This document shows positions 4,202-21,829 of a stretch of 64,000 nucleotides of DNA, in pieces. Both the position numbers and the translations under genes were made by a program. The notes beneath the pieces were generated by a model, which saw nothing but the letters and a program-made list of their open reading frames with translations, was not told the DNA's origin and did no database searches. The DNA is from Streptomyces parvus (GTDB lineage Bacteria; Actinomycetota; Actinomycetes; Streptomycetales; Streptomycetaceae): positions 1,364,001 through 1,428,000 of the forward strand of contig NZ_CP135079.1 of NCBI RefSeq assembly GCF_032121415.1. The letters run 5' to 3'. Each line of letters starts with the position of its first letter. Position 1 is the first letter of the stretch.

Positions 4202-6343
4202 TCAGGCCATGCCCGCTTCCTTCATCTGCCGCAGTTCCTTCTTCAGTTCGCCCACCTCGTCGCGCAGCCGGGCGGCCACCTCGAACTGCAGGTCCGCGGC
4301 GGCGGCCCGCATCCGGTCGGTCATCTCCTCGATGATCCCGGCCAGTTCGGTCGCGGGCCGGTCGCTGAGCACCGCGCCGGCCTTGGCGGCCTTACCCTTC
4401 GCCGCCCCCTTCGCCCCGCCCTTGGCCGCCTTGCCGCCGAGCGCGGGGACCGGGGCCTTGGTCTCCTCGCCCTGCCGGTAGCCGGTGCCGAGGAGCTGTT
4501 CGGTGTCGATCTCCTCGCGGGCGATGGTCGCGACGATGTCGTTGATCTTCTTGCGCAGCGGCTGCGGGTCGATGCCCCGCTCGGTGTTGTAGGCGATCTG
4601 CTTCTCGCGGCGCCGGTTCGTCTCGTCGATCGCCTGCGCCATGGCCGGGGTGACCTTGTCGGCGTACATGTGGACCTGGCCGGAGACGTTGCGGGCGGCG
4701 CGGCCGATGGTCTGGATGAGCGAGGTGCCGGAGCGCAGGAAGCCCTGCTTGTCGGCGTCGAGAATGGCCACGAGCGACACCTCGGGAAGGTCGAGGCCCT
4801 CGCGCAGCAGGTTGATGCCGACGAGCACGTCGTACTCACCGGAGCGCAGCTCGCGCAGCAGCTCGATACGGCGCAGGGTGTCGACGTCGCTGTGCAGATA
4901 GCGGACCTGGATACCGAGCTCCAGGAAGTAGTCGGTGAGGTCCTCGGCCATCTTCTTGGTGAGTGTGGTGACCAGGACCCGCTCGTCGCGCTCGGTGCGC
5001 TCGCGGATCTCGTGGACCAGATCGTCGATCTGGCCCTCTGTGGGCTTGACCACGACCTCGGGGTCGACGAGACCGGTGGGGCGGATGATCTGCTCGACGA
5101 ACCCGTCGCCGCGCGAGAGCTCGTACTTCCCCGGGGTGGCGGAGAGGTACACCGTCTGGTCGATCCGCTTCAGGAACTCCTCCCACTTCAGCGGCCGGTT
5201 GTCCATGGCGGACGGCAGCCGGAAGCCGTGGTCGACGAGGGTCCGCTTGCGGGAGGCGTCCCCCTCGTACATCGCGCCGATCTGCGGGACGGTGACGTGG
5301 GACTCGTCCAGGACCAGCAGGAAGTCGTCCGGGAAGTAGTCGAGGAGGGTGTTGGGGGCGGTGCCGGGCGCGCGGTCGTCGAAGTGCATCGAGTAGTTCT
5401 CGACGCCGGAGCAGGTGCCGATCTGGCGGAGCATCTCGATGTCGTACGTCGTGCGCATGCGCAGTCGCTGGGCCTCCAGCATCTTGCCTTGCTTCTCCAG
5501 CTCGGCCAGGCGCTGCTCCAGCTCCCGCTCGATGCCGCTGACGGCCCGCTCCATGCGCTCGGGCCCGGCGACGTAGTGGCTGGCGGGGAAGACGTGGACC
5601 GTGGGGTCCTCGCTGATGATCTCGCCGGTGAGCGGGTGGAGCGTGGACAGGTTCTCGATCTCGTCGCCGAACATCTCGATGCGGACGGCGAGCTCCTCGT
5701 AGACCGGGAAGATCTCGATGGTGTCGCCCCGAACCCGGAAGGTGCCGCGGGTGAACGCGAGGTCGTTGCGGGTGTACTGCATCTCGACGAAGCGGCGCAG
5801 CAGCTGGTCGCGGTCGATCTCCTCGCCGACCTTGAGCTGGACCATGCGGTCCACGTACTCCTGGGGCGTACCGAGGCCGTAGATGCAGGAGACGGAGGCG
5901 ACCACGACGACGTCGCGCCGGGTGAGCAGCGAATTCGTCGCGGAGTGGCGCAGCCTCTCGACCTCCTCGTTGATGGAGGAGTCCTTCTCGATGTAGGTGT
6001 CCGACTGCGGGACGTACGCCTCGGGCTGGTAGTAGTCGTAGTACGAGACGAAATACTCCACCGCGTTGTTCGGGAGGAGCTCGCGGAACTCGTTGGCCAG
6101 CTGGGCGGCGAGCGTCTTGTTCGGCGCCATCACCAGGGTGGGGCGCTGCAGCTTCTCGATCATCCAGGCGGTGGTCGCCGACTTGCCGGTGCCGGTCGCG
6201 CCGAGCAGGACGACGTCCTTCTCATCGGCGCGGATACGCCGCTCCAGCTCGGCGATGGCCGCCGGCTGGTCGCCGCTGGGCTGGTAGGGACTGACGACCT
6301 CGAAAGGCCGCACCGAACGTTCGATCTTGGAAACGGGCCGCAT
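4202..6343 (-). CDS. uvrB: Excinuclease ABC subunit UvrB (713 aa)
   Basis: UvrB is the damage-verification helicase of nucleotide excision repair. It is loaded by UvrA and then recruits UvrC for dual incision. The Walker A motif GATGTGKS is at residues 48-55. The beta-hairpin that clamps the strand is visible ([14 protein letters not shown], about 100-113). Helicase motifs include LDESHV and QTIGRAARN, and the C-terminal UVR domain that contacts UvrC has the pattern [17 protein letters not shown]. The full-length protein (family ~670-720 aa) has a basic, Ala/Gly/Lys-rich insert at about 625-650 ([19 protein letters not shown]), common in streptomycetes. The gene ends in a hairpin at 4158-4188. 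Confidence 0.98.
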
Positions 6344-6382: not shown

Positions 6383-7282
6383 TCAGCGGTACCGGGCCCT
6401 TCCCGCGTCCTTTCGGGCGGTGCTCCGCGGGCGTCGTCCGCGCGCGTGCGGATCGTCCGGCGGGCGCCGGCGCGCCTGCGGGACCAGGTGGTCCCCCGCG
6501 CGGTGGCCGGGGCGGGGGTCCGGGCCCGGCTCGCCCGTCACTGCCCCGGGATCGAACAGGAGCACGACGGCGGCGAGGAGCAGGAAGCAGCCGGGGCCCA
6601 CCAGCATCGGGCCGATCATCTCGACGGGCCGGTCGCCGGGCAGGACGGCGGACAGGTCGGACGGCAGGGTGGGCGGCAGGTGCAGGTGCACGTCGAGCGC
6701 CGCCATGCCGGTGTAGTGCATCCCGGTCACCGCGACGGCCATCAGGACGCTCGCGCCGAGGCCGGAGAGGGCTCCCCGCAGGGTGACGGCCGCCCACAGC
6801 GCGCCCGTGGCGGCGCACCCGGCGATCAGTACCGAGAGGACGACGAGAGGCGTGTCGTACGCGAACTGGGCGGCCATGCGCATGCCCGCCATCCCGAGAT
6901 AGTGCATCGAGGCGATGCCGAGACCGGTGATGGTGCCACCCGTGATCAACGCCATGCGGGTCGCGCCCCGGTACCCGACAATGAAGATGCCGATGCCGAT
7001 CATCACCACGGCCACGGCCAGGCCGGCGAAGGTGAGGGGCTTGTCGTAGGAGATCGGCGTCTCCTGGACGGTGAAGCCCGTCATCGCGACGAAGTGCATG
7101 GTCCACACCCCGGAGCCGATGGACAGCGAGCCCAGGGCCAGCCAGCCGACCCGACAGGAGCGTGTGGCGTGAAGGGACCTGGTGGTGCAGCGGAGCCCGA
7201 GGGCGGCTCCCAGGGCGGCCATGAGGAACGCCGCGACCGGCGTCACCAGGCCGTAGGCGAAACCGTCGACTGTTCCTTGCAT
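6383..7282 (-). CDS. MHYT-domain integral membrane sensor (299 aa)
   Basis: Seven hydrophobic segments carry three copies of the MHYT signature: WTMHFVAM (about 61), ASMHYLGM (about 123) and TGMHYTGM (about 186). The conserved Met and His residues are proposed to bind copper and sense O2, CO or NO. In many bacteria MHYT units are fused to GGDEF/EAL or kinase domains. Here the membrane region is followed only by a ~60-residue basic tail rich in Arg and Pro, so no output domain is present. It sits between uvrB and the divergent secreted phosphodiesterase gene. The family assignment is clear; the ligand and signalling partner are not visible. Confidence 0.9.
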   Translation of the reverse strand: MQGTVDGFAYGLVTPVAAFLMAALGAALGLRCTTRSLHATRSCRVGWLALGSLSIGSGVWTMHFVAMTGFTVQETPISYDKPLTFAGLAVAVVMIGIGIFIVGYRGATRMALITGGTITGLGIASMHYLGMAGMRMAAQFAYDTPLVVLSVLIAGCAATGALWAAVTLRGALSGLGASVLMAVAVTGMHYTGMAALDVHLHLPPTLPSDLSAVLPGDRPVEMIGPMLVGPGCFLLLAAVVLLFDPGAVTGEPGPDPRPGHRAGDHLVPQARRRPPDDPHARGRRPRSTARKDAGRARYR

Positions 7283-15895: not shown

Positions 15896-15926
15896 GGGCC
15901 CGGAGGCGTAGCCGGCCTCCGGGCCC
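15896..15926 (+). terminator. Hairpin terminator after the aminotransferase gene
   Basis: GGGCCCGGAGGC (15896-15907) pairs perfectly with GCCTCCGGGCCC (15915-15926) across a 7-nt loop, 40 bp past the stop. It separates this gene from the convergent tRNA-mimic locus. Confidence 0.65.
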
Positions 15927-15963
15927 TGTGAGCGCCGCCCATCTGGCACGCCGGCACGTTTAA

Positions 15964-16072
15964 GGGTCCGGGTCAGTCATGATGTCGTCGCGTCCTGCCT
16001 TTGGACCACCGCAGATCGGAGCTCTGCGGGCCGGACTTGAACCGGCATCTCGACGCGCGCGGGCCCGGGCCC
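15964..16072 (-). ncRNA. tRNA-mimicking RNA, unit 2 (permuted tRNA / YrlA-like module)
   Basis: Read 5'-3' on the minus strand, the order is: CGTCG (16055-16051), 4-nt variable loop, T-arm GCCGG-TTCAAGT-CCGGC (16046-16030), acceptor 3' strand CCGCAGA (16029-16023), 7-nt linker, acceptor 5' strand TCTGCGG (16015-16009), TG, D-arm GTCC-AAAGGCA-GGAC (16006-15992), G, CGACG (15990-15986). Acceptor strands pair over 7 bp, the D-stem over 4, the T-stem over 5, and CGACG with CGTCG as an anticodon-type stem. The halves are in inverted order relative to a tRNA. Outside, 16072-16062 can pair with 15974-15964 (9 of 11 positions), closing the RNA on itself. There is no U33-type anticodon loop. This is the architecture of bacterial Y RNAs or of a permuted tRNA gene. 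Confidence 0.78.
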
Positions 16073-16107
16073 GTTCGATCCGGCGATCGGCGGCGAATGC
16101 TGAGTCT

Positions 16108-16239
16108 GGAGCAAGAGTCTGAGATTGACGGCGGTCTGCCTCTGCCTGCTTGGGCTACTCCGGCCCGTGCCGGAGGGAGGAGTCGAACCTCCACTGGAAC
16201 CGCGCCTTCACGACAAGCTTCAGTTTCAGCTTGCGCTCC
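16108..16239 (-). ncRNA. tRNA-mimicking RNA, unit 1 (permuted tRNA / YrlA-like module)
   Basis: On the minus strand the order is CGGTT (16202-16198), 5-nt variable loop CCAGT, T-arm GGAGG-TTCGACT-CCTCC (16192-16176), acceptor 3' strand CTCCGGC (16175-16169), loop ACGG, acceptor 5' strand GCCGGAG (16164-16158), TA, D-arm GCC-CAAGCAGGCAGA-GGC (16155-16138), A, GACCG (16136-16132). The acceptor helix is 7 perfect bp, the T-stem 5 and the D-stem 3. CGGTT pairs with GACCG (one G-U). The 3' portion from CGGTT to the discriminator is 35 nt, exactly tRNA positions 39-73. Flanks also pair: 16239-16230 with 16115-16108 (8 bp, 2-nt bulge). The unit starts ~50 nt after the stop of the upstream gene on the same strand. 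Confidence 0.8.
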
Positions 16240-16287
16240 TCGCGCACCCCCATCGCCTTGATCGGCGACCGGGGAATCCATGGTCGG

Positions 16288-17019
16288 TCACCCGAAGAGG
16301 TAACCGAATACCGCATCACCCACCTGCTGGTCGGTGACCTCCGCACCGTTGGCCTCCTCGCGGGCGAACTTCACGGCCTGCTGGAGCTTCTCGATCCGGT
16401 CCAGCAGTTCGTTGACGCGCCGCGCGGGCAGCGCCCCGGAGAACTTGACGGTCGTCCAGTATCCGACCGGGATGTCCTCGTAGTACACCTCGACCTGCGC
16501 AGGGTGCTTCTCGGTGGCCTCCGCCTTCACATGGTTGCGGGGGACCTTCTTGGTACGGAGCGTACGGACCGGCTCGGTCTTCCAGGAGTCGGTCGACGGG
16601 TCCTGCACCCAGGCCTCGGCCGCGTCCAGGACGGGCAGCTTGCGGACGAAGGTGTTGAGGTCGGTCAGCTGCTTCTCCAGGAAGAGCAGATACGCCACCG
16701 GCACCTCGCTCACCAGCACCCGGCCTTCGACCTTCACATCGGCCCGGGCCGTGCAGTTCGCCCAGTCCTTCGTGGCCGTCACATCGAAGAGGCGAGTGAG
16801 CGTGGCCGCGGTCTCCCGCAGCACGTCCTCGGCCTTGACCTGGACCAGCGTCGACTCGGGCGGAAGCTGTTCGCCCTCCTCGTCCTTGGGCTGGTAGGTA
16901 CGGGAGATCCCGGCCAGCAACGCGGCCTTCTGGAGGCCGTGATGGGCCGCCGTCAGGTCCTGGTGCGCCTTGGACTTGACGCCCTTCTCCACTGCGATGA
17001 TCTGATTGAGTTTCGCCAC
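16288..17019 (-). CDS. Uncharacterised protein upstream of the tRNA-mimic RNAs (243 aa; possibly DUF7873)
   Basis: I do not recognise a function; I recall similar Streptomyces proteins being labelled DUF7873, but this is from memory. The protein is soluble, mixed alpha/beta, with no signal peptide. A helical N-terminus (MAKLNQIIAVEKGVKSKAHQDL) precedes a charged centre. Next come a conserved-looking VAYLLFLEKQLTDLNTFVRKLP helix and a Lys/Arg-rich patch (RTLRTKKVPRNHVKAEATEKHP) that could bind RNA. The C-terminal coiled-coil-like helix is RVNELLDRIEKLQQAVKFAREEANGAE. The GTG start lacks a Shine-Dalgarno, but TGTTAG lies ~11 nt upstream with TTTGGC 17 bp before it, suggesting near-leaderless transcription. 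The two tRNA-mimic RNAs follow directly on the same strand and may be its 3' UTR or partners. Confidence 0.85.
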   Translation of the reverse strand: MAKLNQIIAVEKGVKSKAHQDLTAAHHGLQKAALLAGISRTYQPKDEEGEQLPPESTLVQVKAEDVLRETAATLTRLFDVTATKDWANCTARADVKVEGRVLVSEVPVAYLLFLEKQLTDLNTFVRKLPVLDAAEAWVQDPSTDSWKTEPVRTLRTKKVPRNHVKAEATEKHPAQVEVYYEDIPVGYWTTVKFSGALPARRVNELLDRIEKLQQAVKFAREEANGAEVTDQQVGDAVFGYLFG

Positions 17020-17062: not shown

Positions 17063-18418
17063 TTACCGTACGTAGTGGGGGTCGTCGTCCCCGGCGGTCT
17101 CCGGGACGGCGTCGCCGGCGAGCAGGGCCTCGAGGGCGGAGACCGGATCGGGGTCCGGGGCGGCACGCGGCCACCAGTCGTCGGCGCCGGGGTCGGACTC
17201 GTAGCCGTACCAGCGCATGTCCTGGCCGAAGCGGAGCTGGAGCGAACCGGCCGGGTGGGTGAGGTGGTTGCGCCAGGGCGTGAAGCGCGGGAAGCCGGCG
17301 GCGGCGAGCGCGGGCCTGGCCCGGTCGAAGGGGCCGGCCGGCGGGTCCCAGGGCGTTTCCAGGGCGGCCAGGCCCTCGGCCTCGCCCTGGCGCCAGGCGG
17401 CGACGGCGCGGGCCAGGTCGGTGGTGGTACGGCCGGTCGCGTACGCCAGCTCGCGGTAGAGCGCGCGGGTGGTGGCGGTGAGCCCGGCGGTCGGACGCGC
17501 GGCGGCGAGGCGGACGGCGTCCTGCCATGCGGTGAGCCCGGCCAGCGGGTCGCGGCCGGTGGTCAGCAGGGCGTGGGCGCGGGCGACGGCGTCGGTGGCG
17601 AGGTGGTCCAGGCCCAGCGGGTCGCGGGCGCCGGGCAGGTCCGGGTACGACGGTGGCTGGCCGGGGTGCGGCGGGACGGGACGGGGCGCCGGGAGCGGCG
17701 GGAGGAAGCGGGTGGCGAAGGCCTCGCCCGCCGCGACCGAGGGCATGGCCGGGGCGGCGGGGCGCTCGCGGGCGGAGTGCTCGGCGTTGCGCCGGGCGAG
17801 CGCGTCCAGCAGCTCGCGTTCGCCCCGGCCGCGCATCAGCAGCAGGACGAACGGGTCGCTGTCGAGCAGCAGCGCCGTCTGGAAGCAGAGGGCGGCGACA
17901 TGCTTGCAGGGCCGCCCGCGGTCGGGGCAGGTGCAGCTGGGGTCGAGGTCGTCGGCGGCGGGCAGGAGCCGGACCCCGGCCTCCTCGGCCGTACGGGCGA
18001 GGGAGTGCGGCATCTCCTTGGCCAGCAGCGCGGACAGATGGCCGGGCCGGGCGGCGACCGCGTCGAGCAGGGCCTCCCAGCCCGGGTCGGCGAAGGTGCG
18101 CAGGCGCAGTTCGGCACGGTACGGGCGGGCCCGGCTGCCGTGCACATAGGCGACGACGCGGCCCGGGGTGACGGTGATCGCGGCGACCTGGCCGTCGTCG
18201 GCGTACGCCCGGCCCCGGGCGAGGCGGGCCTCGTCCATCGACAGGGACTCCAGCGCGTCCACCCAGGCCCGGCCCCACCAGCTGCCCGCGAAGGGCTCGC
18301 CCTCGGCGGAGGTACGGGCGGGCACCGCCTCGAAGGTGCGCCGCAGATCGTCCGGGCCGATCCGGGCGCGCGGGGCGGATCTGCGGGCGGCCGGTCCGAT
18401 GGCCGGCCGGGGGCTCAT
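17063..18418 (-). CDS. SWIM zinc-finger protein (451 aa)
   Basis: The SWIM finger reads SCTCPDRGRPCKHVAALC (about residues 165-185), the CxC...CxH zinc motif used in DNA or protein binding. The N-terminus carries SWWGRAWVDALESLSMDEARLARGRAYADDGQV, typical of actinobacterial SWIM proteins paired with SNF2 helicases. The rest is helical and Ala/Pro-rich with no enzyme motif. The ATG (18418) overlaps the stop of the upstream SNF2 gene as ATGA, so the two are translationally coupled. Partnership with the helicase, perhaps in DNA repair or chromatin remodelling, is inferred from this coupling. Confidence 0.9.
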   Translation of the reverse strand: MSPRPAIGPAARRSAPRARIGPDDLRRTFEAVPARTSAEGEPFAGSWWGRAWVDALESLSMDEARLARGRAYADDGQVAAITVTPGRVVAYVHGSRARPYRAELRLRTFADPGWEALLDAVAARPGHLSALLAKEMPHSLARTAEEAGVRLLPAADDLDPSCTCPDRGRPCKHVAALCFQTALLLDSDPFVLLLMRGRGERELLDALARRNAEHSARERPAAPAMPSVAAGEAFATRFLPPLPAPRPVPPHPGQPPSYPDLPGARDPLGLDHLATDAVARAHALLTTGRDPLAGLTAWQDAVRLAAARPTAGLTATTRALYRELAYATGRTTTDLARAVAAWRQGEAEGLAALETPWDPPAGPFDRARPALAAAGFPRFTPWRNHLTHPAGSLQLRFGQDMRWYGYESDPGADDWWPRAAPDPDPVSALEALLAGDAVPETAGDDDPHYVR

Positions 18419-21400
18419 GCGGGCCTCCGCAGGGACACGAGGTCGGCGAGGTCCCGGTCGCTCAGCTCGGTCAGGGCGCTCTCCCCGCTGCCGAGGACCG
18501 CGTCCGCCAGGGCCCGCTTGGACTCCAGCAGCTCGGCGATCCGGTCCTCCACCGTGCCCTCGGCGATGATCCGGTGGACCTGGACGGGCTGGGTCTGGCC
18601 GATCCGGTACGCCCGGTCGGTGGCCTGCTCCTCCACGGCCGGGTTCCACCAGCGGTCGAAGTGGACGACGTGGGCGGCGCGGGTGAGGTTCAGCCCGGTG
18701 CCGGCCGCCTTGAGGGAGAGCAGGAAGACGGGGACCTCGGCGGACTGGAAGCGGTCCACCATCCGCTCCCGCTCGGGCACCGGCGTACCGCCGTGCAGGA
18801 GTTGGGAGGGGATCGCGCGGGAGGCGAGATGCGCGGAGAGGAGCCGCGCCATCGACACGTACTGGGTGAAGATCAGGACCGAGCCGTCCTCGGCGAGGAT
18901 CGTGTCGAGCAGTTCGTCGAGGAGGGCGAGCTTGCCGGAGCGGCCCGTGAGCCGGGTGGGCTCCTCCTTCAGATACTGCGCGGGGTGGTTGCAGATCTGC
19001 TTGAGCGAGGTGAGCAGCTTCATGATCAGGCCCCGGCGGGCGATGCCCTCGGCCGCTTCGATCTGCGCCATCGTCTCGCGGACGGCCGCCTCGTAGAGCA
19101 TGGCCTGTTCATGGGTGAGGGAGACGGGGTGGTCGGTCTCGGTCTTGGGCGGCAGCTCGGGGGCGATGCCGGGGTCGGACTTCTTGCGCCGCAGGAGGAA
19201 GGGGCGCACCAGCCGGGACAGCCGCTCAACCGCCTCGTCGTTGCCGAGACCGGCGGCCGTGTCCGTGCTCTCCACGATCCGGGCGTGCCGGGCCCGGAAC
19301 GCCTTGAGCGGGCCGAGCAGTCCGGGCGTCGTCCAGTCGAGGAGCGCCCAGAGCTCGGAGAGGTTGTTCTCGACGGGGGTGCCGGTGAGGGCGACCCGGG
19401 CCGGGGCCGGGATGGTGCGCAGCGCCTTGGCGGTGGAGGAGTGCGGATTCTTGACGTGCTGCGCCTCGTCGGCGACGACCAGGCCCCAGCTCTGCCCGGC
19501 GAGCTGCGCGGCGCTGGAGCGCATGGTGCCGTAGGTGGTGAGGACGAACCCCCCGTCCGGATCGCTCAGGCTCCGGTCCGTGCCGTGGAAGCGGCGCACG
19601 GGCACGCCGGGGGCGAAACGGTTGATCTCGCGGTGCCAGTTGCCGAGGAGGGAGGCGGGACAGACCACGAGGGTGGGCGAGGGGTGCGCCCGGTGCAGGT
19701 GGAGGGCGATGAGGGTGATCGTCTTGCCGAGGCCCATGTCGTCGGCGAGGCAGCCGCCGAGACCGAGCGAGGTCATCCGGTCCAGCCAGGCCAGGCCGCG
19801 CAGTTGGTAGTCGCGCAGGGTCGCGTCCAGGCCGGGCGGCGGTGCGATCGCCGTGTCGTCGGCGAGGAGGCGGGTCCGGAGCGCGGCGAGGGCCCCGGCC
19901 GGGACGGCGTCCACCCGCTCGCCGTCCACCTCGGCACTGCCGGTGAGCGCGACGGCCAGCGCGTCCACCGGATCCAGGAGCCCCAGCTCCCGCTTGCGCG
20001 CCTTGCGTACGAGCGCGGGATCGACGACCACCCATTGGTCGCGCAACCGCACCACCGGGCGGTGCGCCTCGGCCAGGAGGTCCATCTCGGCCTCGGTCAG
20101 CCGCTCGTCGCCCAGGGACAGCTGCCAGTCGAAGGCGAAGAGGTGATCGGCGTCGAAGAAGGACGTGCCGTCGGTGGCCGATCCGGGCGCGGGCCGCACG
20201 ACAGCGGCCGCGGTGAGCGAACGGGCCAGCTCGCGCGGCCAGCGCACCTCGACCCCGGCTGCGGCCAGCCGGGATCCGGCGTCGCTCAGCAGCTCGTACA
20301 GCTCGTCCTCGGTGATGGCGAGCACATCGGGGACGGGCTGCCCCAGAAGTCGTTCCAGCGGGGCCCAGACACGGGCGGCGCGGCGCAGGGCCAGCACGGC
20401 GTCGACCTGGGAGCGCGGCCCGAAGGGCTCGCCCGCCCCGCCGTTCCACAGGGCCGCCGCGTCCACCACGTACGTCGGGTCGGCGAGGCTGTGCACCTGC
20501 ACGATCGCCGCGGCGGCGGGGCGGACCGCCGGGTCGTCCGCATGCTCCGGCCGTGCGGGGCCGTCGTCGGTCTCCGCCTCCTCCCGGGCGGCGGTGAGCG
20601 CGTAGGTGTCGGCGGTGTCGAACAGCTCGTACGCGGAGAGGTCCAGACGCAGCGAGACCCGCACGCCCGCGTCCAGGCCCGAGGCCACCTCGACGGCCCA
20701 GGCGGCGGCGCGGGGCAGATGCTGGGGCTCGCGGGCGGCGAACGGCGCGCCCATCGCGAACGCGGCGGCGGGCGTGCGCGGCAGCGTGTCGGCGACGGCG
20801 TCCAGGAAAGACCCGGTCAGCGCCTCGGCGTCGGGCAGCCGGGGCGGCTCGGAGCCGGGGACCGGCACCGCGTGCCCCTCGGGCGGCAGGGCGGCGGCGA
20901 CCGCCCGCAGATGCGCCACGTCCTCGGCGTCCGACGGTCCGGCCCGCCAGGCGTCGTGGCCGTCCGCCGTGAGGCCGGGGAGGATCCGGCCGCGGGCGAC
21001 GAGGTGGAGGGCGTGCAGAGCGGCCGCGCCCCAGCAGCGCGCGGCGGGGTGGGCGGACGCCTGCTGCCGGGCCCGGACGAGCAGGGGCAGCGCGTCGGCC
21101 ACGGACAGGAGGGCCGCGGGCACCTCGGCGGTGCGGACGCCTGCGGGGCCCGCGGCAACGTCCGGCCGGACGACCGTGAGCCGGGCGGAGGTGTACGGGA
21201 CGGTGTCGGGGCGTGCGGCGGCGTCCGCGTACGCGAAGGGCGTCCCGGTCCGCTCCGGCGCGGGGTCGGCCCGCCACGGAGGGCCGCCGGCGTGGGAGCC
21301 GCCGTCGGCGCGGGGGTCCCAGAAGGCGATGCGGCCTTCCCTGGGCACCGGTCCGGGCAGGAAGACCGCGGGGTGGCGCAGCAGACGGGTGACGTCGGCG

Positions 21401-21456
21401 GTCCGGGGGGCACCGGCGGTGTCCGGCGCCGCACCCTCACGGGTCTGATCCGTCAT
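18415..21456 (-). CDS. SNF2/HepA-family DEAD/DEAH helicase (1013 aa)
   Basis: The SWI2/SNF2 ATPase core occupies about residues 540-1000: LRDYQLRGLAWLDRM (Q-like), LADDMGLGKTITLIAL (Walker A), VVADEAQHVKNP (DEAQH Walker B), ALTGTPVENNLSELWALLDW (motif III), SVLIFTQYVSMARLL (IV), LLSLKAAGTGLNLTRA (V) and DRAYRIGQTQPVQVHRI (VI). The N-terminal ~500 residues are the conserved bacterial SNF2-associated region. Such enzymes translocate on duplex DNA. I start at ATG 21456 because GGGAGGGGGAG lies just upstream; the frame is open to 21576 but those 40 residues look non-coding. It is coupled by ATGA to the SWIM gene. Confidence 0.95.
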   Translation of the reverse strand: MTDQTREGAAPDTAGAPRTADVTRLLRHPAVFLPGPVPREGRIAFWDPRADGGSHAGGPPWRADPAPERTGTPFAYADAAARPDTVPYTSARLTVVRPDVAAGPAGVRTAEVPAALLSVADALPLLVRARQQASAHPAARCWGAAALHALHLVARGRILPGLTADGHDAWRAGPSDAEDVAHLRAVAAALPPEGHAVPVPGSEPPRLPDAEALTGSFLDAVADTLPRTPAAAFAMGAPFAAREPQHLPRAAAWAVEVASGLDAGVRVSLRLDLSAYELFDTADTYALTAAREEAETDDGPARPEHADDPAVRPAAAAIVQVHSLADPTYVVDAAALWNGGAGEPFGPRSQVDAVLALRRAARVWAPLERLLGQPVPDVLAITEDELYELLSDAGSRLAAAGVEVRWPRELARSLTAAAVVRPAPGSATDGTSFFDADHLFAFDWQLSLGDERLTEAEMDLLAEAHRPVVRLRDQWVVVDPALVRKARKRELGLLDPVDALAVALTGSAEVDGERVDAVPAGALAALRTRLLADDTAIAPPPGLDATLRDYQLRGLAWLDRMTSLGLGGCLADDMGLGKTITLIALHLHRAHPSPTLVVCPASLLGNWHREINRFAPGVPVRRFHGTDRSLSDPDGGFVLTTYGTMRSSAAQLAGQSWGLVVADEAQHVKNPHSSTAKALRTIPAPARVALTGTPVENNLSELWALLDWTTPGLLGPLKAFRARHARIVESTDTAAGLGNDEAVERLSRLVRPFLLRRKKSDPGIAPELPPKTETDHPVSLTHEQAMLYEAAVRETMAQIEAAEGIARRGLIMKLLTSLKQICNHPAQYLKEEPTRLTGRSGKLALLDELLDTILAEDGSVLIFTQYVSMARLLSAHLASRAIPSQLLHGGTPVPERERMVDRFQSAEVPVFLLSLKAAGTGLNLTRAAHVVHFDRWWNPAVEEQATDRAYRIGQTQPVQVHRIIAEGTVEDRIAELLESKRALADAVLGSGESALTELSDRDLADLVSLRRPA

Positions 21457-21829
21457 GTCCACTCCCCCTCCCACTCGATCCCCGGTCTCGGGGTCTCCGG
21501 TCTCCTTCGGCACGGAATGTGCCGACTCCGCGAGTCTAGGCGGGAGGTCTGACACCGCGGACGCCCGCCACATCACCCCAGGTCAGCGGGGCATCGACCG
21601 CTCAGGGGTACGTCCCGTGCGCCTCCGGCTCCGCGAGCGGGTCGCCACGCTCGGTGATGGGCGGACGGGCTGCGGCCGGTGAACCCCCGTCGCTCCGCGG
21701 CTCGCCCGGTCGGCCGCGCCCGGGATGCCGGGGGTGACCGGGCCGGGCAGGGTGGCCAGCGCCAGCACGTCTTTTCCGACGTACCGACTTTGCCGGGCGA
21801 GCACCGGACGAGCAGACGAGGACCCGCCC

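What the first reader, a model, noticed from the sequence alone, without database searches (positions are those of the whole stretch)
15986..16202. Two tandem tRNA-like RNAs with circularly permuted topology
On the minus strand, two units each read T-arm, acceptor 3' strand, short loop, acceptor 5' strand, D-arm. In both, the acceptor strands pair over 7 perfect bp (CTCCGGC/GCCGGAG; CCGCAGA/TCTGCGG). T-arms have canonical TTCGACT and TTCAAGT loops, and D-loops contain GG. In both, the nucleotides just after the D-stem (GACCG; CGACG) pair with those just before the variable loop (CGGTT; CGTCG), exactly where an anticodon stem would be. The 3' part of unit 1 is 35 nt, equal to tRNA positions 39-73. 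Two independent units with this geometry are very unlikely by chance. They are either permuted tRNA genes or RNAs that mimic tRNA, as bacterial Y RNAs (YrlA) do.
Basis: partly seen in the sequence, partly recalled or inferred. Interest (0 to 1): 0.94.

Follow-up and report, generated by a model that had tools for sequence, protein, structure and literature searches.

The report
Twin tRNA-mimic RNA beside DUF7873
Next to a gene for a protein of unknown function, this Streptomyces-type chromosome carries a conserved stretch predicted to make an RNA with two inside-out tRNA-like heads; the same gene-and-RNA pair occurs in phages of very different bacteria, and it would likely work as a handle or bait for tRNA-acting enzymes, like bacterial Y RNAs but without their usual protein partner Ro60.

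Summary
Both units on the minus strand at 15986-16202 read T-arm, 7-bp acceptor stem, D-arm; shuffled windows average 0.1 such hits. They are not permuted tRNA genes: each is the outer head of a long conserved stem, together one ~350-nt structured RNA starting about 40 nt after a DUF7873 gene (16288-17019). Among 214 distinct DUF7873 loci the heads follow the gene in 125/125 Streptomyces and same-class genome loci, 64/74 viral contigs and 14/15 named phage records (hosts: Gordonia, Arthrobacter, Rhodococcus, Rhizobium, Vibrio, Klebsiella, Pseudanabaena). In 101 Streptomyces genomes a covariance model of head 2 scores above 56 bits in 50/50 genomes with DUF7873, beside the gene, and in 0/51 without. 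Stems covary strongly. In 24 of 125 genome loci head 1 was not found; the eight of these that I folded carry a plain hairpin on the same stem. The own genome has no Ro60 (TROVE), and DUF7873 is not associated with Ro60. The closest known kind is bacterial Y RNA (YrlA), but Rfam's cut-off is not reached and Ro60 is absent. Most likely it is a Ro60-independent, Y-like RNP of DUF7873. Transcription, protein binding and function are untested.

The parts
16288..17019 (-). DUF7873 (PF25283) gene, 243 aa, directly upstream of the RNA; predicted RNA partner
   Evidence: Pfam 400.9 bits; RNA model hit above 56 bits beside it in 50 of 50 DUF7873+ Streptomyces genomes, none in 51 without
16233..16245 (-). 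small 5' hairpin GCGC-gagga-GCGC
   Evidence: fold and coordinates; similar hairpins precede the RNA in many loci
16221..16230 (-). stem P1, 5' strand GCTGAAACTG (module 1)
   Evidence: consensus fold of 40 genome representatives, window fold; conserved CTGA-rich block
16099..16109 (-). stem P1, 3' strand CCAGACTCAGC
16198..16202 (-). anticodon-stem-like helix P3, 5' strand CGGTT
   Evidence: only 52-55% of cells paired in alignment A4, poorly aligned
16176..16192 (-). TLD1 T-arm (TTCGACT loop)
   Evidence: covariation
16158..16175 (-). TLD1 acceptor stem hairpin CTCCGGC-ACGG-GCCGGAG, permuted order
   Evidence: 7 of 7 acceptor pairs with two-sided changes across 53 sequences
16138..16155 (-). 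TLD1 D-arm with GG
16132..16136 (-). helix P3, 3' strand GACCG
16106..16122 (-). conserved motif TCAGACTCTTGCTCCAG between the heads
   Evidence: alignment across phages and genomes
16080..16094 (-). stems P4 (GCCGCC 16094-16089) and P5 (CGCCGG 16085-16080), 5' strands (module 2)
16064..16072 (-). closing helix P6, 5' strand GGGCCCGGG
   Evidence: 9 of 9 pairs with two-sided changes, 82.3% of cells paired; not part of the selection scan
16051..16055 (-). anticodon-stem-like helix P7, 5' strand CGTCG
   Evidence: 5 of 5 pairs with two-sided changes, 62.4% of cells paired
16030..16046 (-). TLD2 T-arm (TTCAAGT loop)
16009..16029 (-). TLD2 acceptor stem hairpin CCGCAGA-GCTCCGA-TCTGCGG, permuted order
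   Evidence: 7 of 7 pairs with two-sided changes
15992..16006 (-). TLD2 D-arm with GG
15986..15990 (-). helix P7, 3' strand CGACG
15964..15972 (-). helix P6, 3' strand CCCGGACCC (one C-A mismatch with the 5' strand in the window)
15957..15964 (-). conserved motif CTTAAACG
   Evidence: alignment
15934..15954 (-). stems P5 (CCGGCG 15954-15949) and P4 (GGGCGGC 15940-15934), 3' strands
15896..15926 (-). 3' hairpin, loop with GGCTA here and often GGATA in relatives; likely RNA 3' end
   Evidence: no T-run terminator scored

Best explanation
The two units are the tRNA-like heads of one conserved RNA of about 350 nt that is predicted to be made from the minus strand just downstream of a DUF7873 gene, would likely form an RNP with that protein, and would likely work like a bacterial Y RNA (stem scaffold plus permuted tRNA mimic) but without Ro60. 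Shown here: sequence, conservation, covariation of the stems, linkage to DUF7873, independence from Ro60, and modularity (head 1 can be missing, with a plain hairpin in its place). Inferred: DUF7873 binds the conserved stem core (P1, P4-P6, the TCAGAnTCTCGCTCCAG and CTTAAACG motifs, the 3' hairpin), and the two heads are bound by tRNA-acting proteins (processing enzymes, synthetases or tRNA nucleases), so that the RNP tethers or occupies them. In phages, where the pair in several cases sits inside a tRNA array, the likeliest use is protecting or tuning the tRNA pool during infection; Streptomyces would have kept it as a chromosomal accessory.
For: Two units confirmed and beyond chance. Linkage: heads within 900 nt downstream of DUF7873 in 125/125 genome, 64/74 IMG/VR and 14/15 named-phage loci, 214 distinct of 257 loci then held; upstream control 21 hits in 985,672 b, which contains real tRNA arrays. 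Of the 11 viral loci with no head by that scan, 9 match model R1 at E<=0.01. Model R1 over 101 Streptomyces genomes: beside DUF7873 in 50/50 DUF+ genomes (57.9-110.4 bits); best hit elsewhere 55.8 bits, so none of the 51 DUF- genomes exceeds that (sets compared). In 296 class genomes, 22 of the 25 DUF+ and none of the other 271 reach 1e-12. Covariation: A5 88.1% of cells paired, 29/30 pairs with two-sided change, 403 two-sided cells against 146 shuffled and 63-140 slid; A4 88.2%, 18/20 pairs. Modularity: of 26 genome loci with one head by scan, R1 finds TLD2 in all 26 and TLD1 in 2; 8 of 8 folded show a plain hairpin on the same stem. Architecture matches real Y RNAs: ten Streptomyces Ro60 loci, picked because R1 had a hit there, carry permuted-head RNAs directly upstream of the Ro60 gene, eight of ten with two (one read and identified). 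Ro60 independence: no Ro60 in the own genome; in 101 genomes both 33, DUF only 17, TROVE only 26, neither 25, Fisher p 0.16. YrlA's head has been suggested, as one possibility, to inhibit an anticodon nuclease competitively (PMC7790460, passages).
Against: No transcript or binding data. DUF7873 is slightly acidic (pI 6.0, K+R 32, D+E 35), has no Pfam function, no PADLOC or PHROGs match, no PDB sequence relative and no clear fold match, so an RNA-binding role rests on linkage alone. T-stem, acceptor and D-arm start were selection criteria of the scan, so their pairing is partly by construction (P6 and P7 are not). P7 is paired in only 62% of cells and P3 in 52-55%. RNAalifold recovers the outer stems P1, P4, P5 in the 40 genome representatives, P5 and P6 in 20 actino-type viral ones, but in 23 other viral ones only the heads, part of P6 and scattered pairs. 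Two viral loci (L008, L201) show no R1 match beside DUF7873 even unfiltered; L201's best is 18.7 bits, upstream on the other strand. In L014, L210 and L087 the match lies on the other strand, upstream, or about 2 kb downstream. TLD1 was not found in 24 of 125 genome loci. Neighbouring genes vary: 28 of 75 named genome loci, and 10 of 50 loci with shorter flanks, share a neighbour with the window.
Confidence: 0.62

Rival explanations
1. The acceptor loops are cut by the cell's tRNA-maturation enzymes, as proposed for two-piece tmRNA. The RNA then becomes three base-paired pieces with two CCA ends that can be charged with amino acids (TLD1 probably leucine), and acts as an aminoacylated adaptor rather than a passive mimic.
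For: The loop starts like a tRNA gene's 3' end, a feature not used in the scan: C74 in 83/98 (TLD1) and 98/98 (TLD2) genome units and 87/94 viral units; CCA at 74-76 in 24/98, 7/98 and 47/94. Host tRNA genes show C74 51/51 and CCA 10/51; ARAGORN tRNAs beside viral loci 267/293 and 61/293. N73 is A in 133/145 TLD1. The tRNA most similar to TLD1 is tRNA-Leu in 117/145, from a library with 52 Leu of 368. In the 98 genome TLD2 units N73 and the first pair go together without exception, G73 with U1-A72 in 70 (as in tRNA-Gln/Asn of this genome) and U73 with G1-C72 in 28 (as in tRNA-Gly); in 47 viral units the same two combinations make up 34. Two-piece tmRNA genes are permuted and are thought to be opened by RNase P and tRNase Z (PMC3985003, passages).
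Against: Many loops are 4-8 nt, only ACGG in the window's TLD1, and would hardly expose a CCA end. Permuted heads of Ro60-linked RNAs in part also start N-C, so the signature may be a relic of origin from tandem tRNAs. TLD1 was not found in 24 of 125 genome loci. The isotype score is home-made and the library holds some false ARAGORN calls.
Confidence: 0.2
2. Circularly permuted tRNA genes that yield ordinary tRNAs after splicing and end processing, as in red algae and Thermofilum.
For: 3' half before 5' half with a short intervening sequence, tRNA tertiary signature (GG in D-loop, TTCRA in T-loop; both also scan criteria).
Against: No anticodon loop: the five pairs next to the D-arm continue into P6 and further conserved stems. 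TLD1 not found in 24/125 genome loci although the core is kept. The known pathway acts on a BHB motif with tRNA-splicing enzymes (PMC3978253, passages), which bacteria are not known to have (recalled).
Confidence: 0.03
3. A true Ro60 Y RNA (YrlA family) left behind after loss of Ro60, with DUF7873 a mere neighbour.
For: Same permuted head; full-length sub-threshold YrlA match and further ones at other DUF7873 loci, up to 40.6 bits.
Against: Linkage to DUF7873 is 50/50 against 0/51 and holds in phages of several bacterial groups; no association with TROVE; genomes with both carry separate Ro60-linked RNAs, e.g. G033, G016, G021, G074. YrlA scores of 30-38 bits also arise in L012 at 5106-5563, away from the DUF7873 RNA, at what look like tRNA-gene junctions (one overlaps a tRNA-Pro call).
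Confidence: 0.1
4. Remains of a phage tRNA array: junctions between decayed tandem tRNA genes.
For: Phage copies lie in annotated tRNA arrays in several records; the geometry is that of a tRNA-tRNA junction, and model R1 scores 52.6 bits on neighbouring tRNA genes (G000:C2:1950240-1950362).
Against: Conserved non-tRNA stems and motifs, compensatory changes across phages and chromosomes, strict gene linkage. It may well be how the RNA arose.
Confidence: 0.03

Closest known systems
Bacterial Y RNA with tRNA-like domain (YrlA, Rfam RF02553), partner Ro60/Rsr
   Same: Long stem carrying a permuted tRNA head in the order T-arm, acceptor, D-arm; encoded beside its protein gene, often two RNAs in tandem (eight of ten Streptomyces Ro60 loci examined; rsr-yrlBA named in PMC7790460, passages).
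   Different: Partner gene is DUF7873, not TROVE; 23.7 bits against a gathering score of 69; both heads in one about 350-nt unit with its own conserved motifs and 3' hairpin; RNA follows the protein gene, while in the ten Ro60 loci examined here the RNAs precede it.
Permuted two-piece tmRNA (Rfam RF04321, RF01849)
   Same: Permuted tRNA-like domain whose acceptor loop joins what would be the mature 3' and 5' ends; CCA encoded in many relatives.
   Different: Two heads, no gathering-level tmRNA match on the region in the window or over the RNA in 14 related loci; SmpB link, tag frame and pseudoknots not examined.
Circularly permuted tRNA genes (Cyanidioschyzon, Thermofilum; PMC3978253, passages)
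   Same: 3' half upstream of 5' half, short intervening sequence.
   Different: No anticodon loop, conserved closing stems instead, head 1 replaceable by a hairpin.
DUF7873 family (PF25283)
   Same: The window protein is a full-length member (400.9 bits, residues 1-242).
   Different: No difference seen; the family has no function and no paper in the library searched names it.

Membership tests
Bacterial Y RNA (YrlA, RF02553) | Permuted tRNA-like head (T-arm, acceptor, D-arm) on a stem | tested here: met
Bacterial Y RNA (YrlA, RF02553) | Score at or above the Rfam gathering threshold | tested here: not met
   23.7 bits for unit 1, threshold 69; no gathering hit to YrlA in the window or in 14 related loci. 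Ro60-linked Streptomyces RNAs also stay below it (30.1-55.9 bits)
Bacterial Y RNA (YrlA, RF02553) | Encoded near a Ro60/TROVE gene | tested here: not met
   No TROVE in the own genome by family or by Streptomyces Ro60 protein; no association across 101 genomes
Bacterial Y RNA (YrlA, RF02553) | Bound by Ro60 through the closing stem | not testable with these tools
   needs a binding assay
Circularly permuted tRNA gene | 3' half precedes 5' half with an intervening sequence | tested here: met
Circularly permuted tRNA gene | Halves assemble a complete tRNA with anticodon arm and loop | tested here: not met
   P7 runs on into P6 and further stems; TLD1 not found in 24 of 125 genome loci, plain hairpin in the 8 folded
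Circularly permuted tRNA gene | Bulge-helix-bulge motif at the junction | not tested
   no BHB search was run
Permuted two-piece tmRNA | Match to Rfam tmRNA families over the region | tested here: not met
   none at gathering level in the window or over the RNA in 14 related loci
Permuted two-piece tmRNA | 3' CCA end at the acceptor | tested here: inconclusive
   C74 in 268 of 290 units, full CCA in 78 of 290; the window's units have C74 but no CCA
Permuted two-piece tmRNA | Tag reading frame and pseudoknots | not tested
   -
DUF7873 (PF25283), for the upstream gene | Pfam gathering score over the full length | tested here: met
   400.9 bits, cut-off 27
Ro60/TROVE (PF05731), for the upstream gene | TROVE domain | tested here: not met
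   only DUF7873 reported for this protein

The most novel reading that the evidence does not exclude
A phage-borne RNA machine with two tRNA-like heads that is opened at both acceptor loops by tRNA-maturation enzymes, CCA-tailed and charged (TLD1 with leucine), held together and positioned by DUF7873: a three-piece, tmRNA-like adaptor or tRNA-nuclease decoy that spread among phages of actinobacteria, proteobacteria and cyanobacteria and was adopted by about half of Streptomyces.
Probability: 0.17. Interest if true: 0.95.

Novelty: new variant of a known kind. Interest (0 to 1): 0.8.

Why it matters
It would show that tRNA-mimicking stem RNAs are not a Ro60 speciality but a building plan used with at least one other protein family, and that phages carry it widely, in several cases within tRNA arrays. 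It gives a large orphan protein family (7387 proteins at E<=0.001 among the 7996 candidates scored) a likely partner and a direct test. If the heads catch tRNA nucleases or processing enzymes, it would be a new way for phages to defend or manage tRNAs, a question left open for YrlA itself (PMC7790460, passages).

Tried and rejected
ARAGORN's tRNA-Phe(gaa) at 16167-16254 takes TLD1's T-arm and acceptor 3' strand with an unrelated 5' part; Rfam's tRNA model gives only 17.7 bits there: rejected as a false call.

A de novo covariation scan on 83 representatives ranks the head stems and P6 highest; the outer stems do not score, whether from conservation or poor alignment. Sub-threshold YrlA hits were at first taken as support, then weakened because tRNA-gene sequence elsewhere in L012 scores as well. 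Literature: no paper in the library names DUF7873; nothing describing permuted tRNA-like RNAs of this kind was seen in the listings (open-licence PMC papers only). Chen 2014 (RNA) and the 2018 YrlA structure are recalled; the first is not held and was seen only as a reference in PMC7790460. PMC10085705 was searched for terms only.

Full report
What is there. In the whole window the scanned geometry occurs only twice, here; 60 dinucleotide-shuffled windows average 0.1 hits (maximum 2), and with perfect stems 200 shuffles give one hit in all. Upstream on the same strand lies a 243-aa DUF7873 gene, 16288-17019. The stretch from 16245 to 15895 folds on its own into two modules and a hairpin: module 1 = P1, P2, P3 and head TLD1; module 2 = P4, P5, P6, P7 and head TLD2; then a 3' hairpin.

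The genome. The nearest named relatives of the gene are Streptomyces (98% protein identity to S. parvus and others), so the window is taken to be Streptomyces. The own genome has no Ro60 by TROVE family or by a Streptomyces Ro60 protein.

Distribution. DUF7873 is in 50 of 101 Streptomyces genomes, 25 of 296 class genomes, 73 of 50,697 phage records, and 4 of 72,556 plasmid-collection records, one of them chromosome-sized. Of 7996 database candidates scored, 7387 are relatives. I held 257 loci; 214 were distinct, reached the protein's C-terminus and had 400 nt downstream. Heads follow the gene within 900 nt in 125/125 genome loci (99 with two or more), 64/74 IMG/VR loci (41) and 14/15 named-phage loci (8). 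The upstream control gives 21 hits in 985,672 bases; an earlier count on 82 loci gave 74 with at least one and 59 with two, and 6 control hits in 684,611 bases. Of the 40 viral loci with fewer than two heads by scan, 38 match model R1 at E<=0.01, among them 9 of the 11 that had none; in L014 the match is on the other strand, in L210 upstream, in L087 about 2 kb downstream; L008 and L201 have nothing convincing.

Linkage test. Model R1 was built from 45 TLD2 modules. In the 101 Streptomyces genomes all 50 DUF7873-positive ones have a hit beside the gene (57.9-110.4 bits) and the best hit anywhere else is 55.8 bits (the two sets of 50 are identical). Nearly every genome has such weaker hits (98 of 101 have some match at E<=0.001). 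Those I traced are neighbouring tRNA genes (the own genome's hit at C2:1950240-1950362, 52.6 bits, overlaps two tRNA genes) and RNAs next to Ro60 genes. In 296 class genomes 22 reach 1e-12, all among the 25 with DUF7873; of the other three, G088 has 3.0e-12, G246 has both heads by scan (L076) and G291 has only two fragments of DUF7873. Some DUF7873-positive genomes supplied sequences to the model, so the independent part of this test is the absence of the RNA where the gene is absent.

Covariation. On A5, 88.1% of cells pair, 29 of 30 pairs show two-sided changes and the covariation score is 0.759 against 0.234 shuffled and 0.11-0.19 slid. P6, which played no part in finding the sequences, has two-sided changes in 9 of 9 pairs and 82.3% pairing; P7 62.4%. 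On A4 the acceptor of TLD1 has two-sided changes in 7 of 7 pairs, while P3 is weak, 52-55% paired. RNAalifold finds P1 and P3-P7 in 40 genome representatives, P5 and P6 in 20 actino-type viral ones, and little beyond the heads and part of P6 in 23 other viral ones. Conserved motifs outside the heads link distant members: TCAGAnTCTCGCTCCAG between the heads, GATCGAnCG before P6, CTTAAACG after it, and a 3' hairpin whose loop is often GGATA.

Modularity. Of 125 genome loci, 26 show one head by scan. R1 finds TLD2 in all 26 and TLD1 in two, which leaves 24 without a detected TLD1; R1 is a TLD2 model and may miss odd TLD1 copies. I printed ten of the 24 and folded eight: all eight keep P1 and the central motif but carry a plain hairpin where TLD1 would be. 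This argues that the heads are attachments on a scaffold and not tRNA genes.

The acceptor loop. Its first bases look like a tRNA gene's 3' end: C74 in 83/98 and 98/98 genome units and 87/94 viral units, CCA in 24/98, 7/98 and 47/94; host tRNA genes have C74 51/51 and CCA 10/51. TLD1 is most like tRNA-Leu (117/145 nearest neighbours; library 52 of 368 Leu). In genome TLD2 units, G73 always goes with U1-A72 (70) and U73 with G1-C72 (28); viral units are more mixed (34 of 47 in these two classes). This leaves open that the loops are opened and tailed in the cell; the 4-nt loop of the window's TLD1 speaks against it here.

The Ro60 comparison. I fetched ten Streptomyces Ro60 loci, chosen because R1 had a hit there. 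In each, permuted-head RNAs lie directly upstream of the Ro60 gene, two in eight of the ten by R1. One such gene codes for a 541-aa TROVE protein. Rfam's YrlA scores these RNAs at 30.1-55.9 bits, also below its cut-off. In the 101 genomes 33 have DUF7873 and TROVE, 17 DUF7873 only, 26 TROVE only, 25 neither; Fisher p is 0.16. The protein search with a Streptomyces Ro60 adds one fragment in a genome without DUF7873. So the DUF7873 RNA is built on the Y RNA plan but goes with another protein.

Phage setting. In Arthrobacter phage Mimi, Gordonia phage Phendrix, Rhodococcus phage NiceHouse and Rhizobium phages Y65 and TM21B the pair sits inside annotated tRNA arrays; Vibrio phage K479 has tRNA genes on both sides. 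Others, such as the cyanophage Pam2, have none annotated nearby. In Klebsiella phage FBKp24 a promoter is annotated between the gene and the RNA. By ARAGORN, 50 of 89 viral loci hold at least one tRNA in the fetched stretch, but that count can include false calls on the heads.

Mechanism. Most likely DUF7873 binds the stem core, and the heads recruit or occupy proteins that handle tRNAs. For YrlA, Hughes et al. suggest competitive inhibition of an anticodon nuclease as one possibility, and a review of jumbo phages places TROVE proteins with a tRNA-like partner in RNA repair (PMC7790460 and PMC7824862, passages). Everything after 'conserved, structured, DUF7873-linked sequence' is inference.

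Noticed in passing
L322-L331 (unnamed Streptomyces genomes), directly upstream of Ro60 genes: Streptomyces Ro60 loci carry permuted-head Y RNAs, two in eight of the ten loci fetched, all below Rfam's YrlA cut-off; the family model seems too narrow for actinobacteria.
   Followed up: partly
L015 (IMGVR_UViG_3300033405_000165) 5543-5840: A viral contig with DUF7873 also carries a permuted tmRNA (RF04321, 59.8 bits, cut-off 47).
   Followed up: no
L084 (Gordonia phage Phendrix, NC_070764.1) 2072-2600: tmRNA (RF00023, 89 bits) in the tRNA array, not annotated in the record.
   Followed up: no
L087 (Microcoleus phage My-WqHQDG) 4950-5159: HEARO RNA (129.1 bits) between DUF7873 and the tandem R1 hits at 6562-6919.
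   Followed up: no
L254 (Klebsiella phage FBKp24) 4018-4097: Annotated suppressor tRNA (TTA) overlaps the TLD2 region; probably a false call on the mimic.
   Followed up: partly
L249, L256 (Rhizobium phages) and L248, L257 (Vibrio phages): Only one head is found beside DUF7873 by scan; whether the first head is lost or diverged is open.
   Followed up: partly
control genome Deinobacterium chartae: The only one of 14 control genomes positive for DUF7873, and also the only one positive for TROVE.
   Followed up: no
L012 5106-5563: Three sub-threshold YrlA hits (30-38 bits) 1.3-1.8 kb beyond DUF7873, at what look like tRNA-gene junctions; further permuted heads are not excluded.
   Followed up: partly
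window 17063-18649 and 18415-21576 (-): ORF with a SWIM zinc finger overlapping an SNF2 helicase ORF upstream of DUF7873; neighbours in only some Streptomyces.
   Followed up: partly
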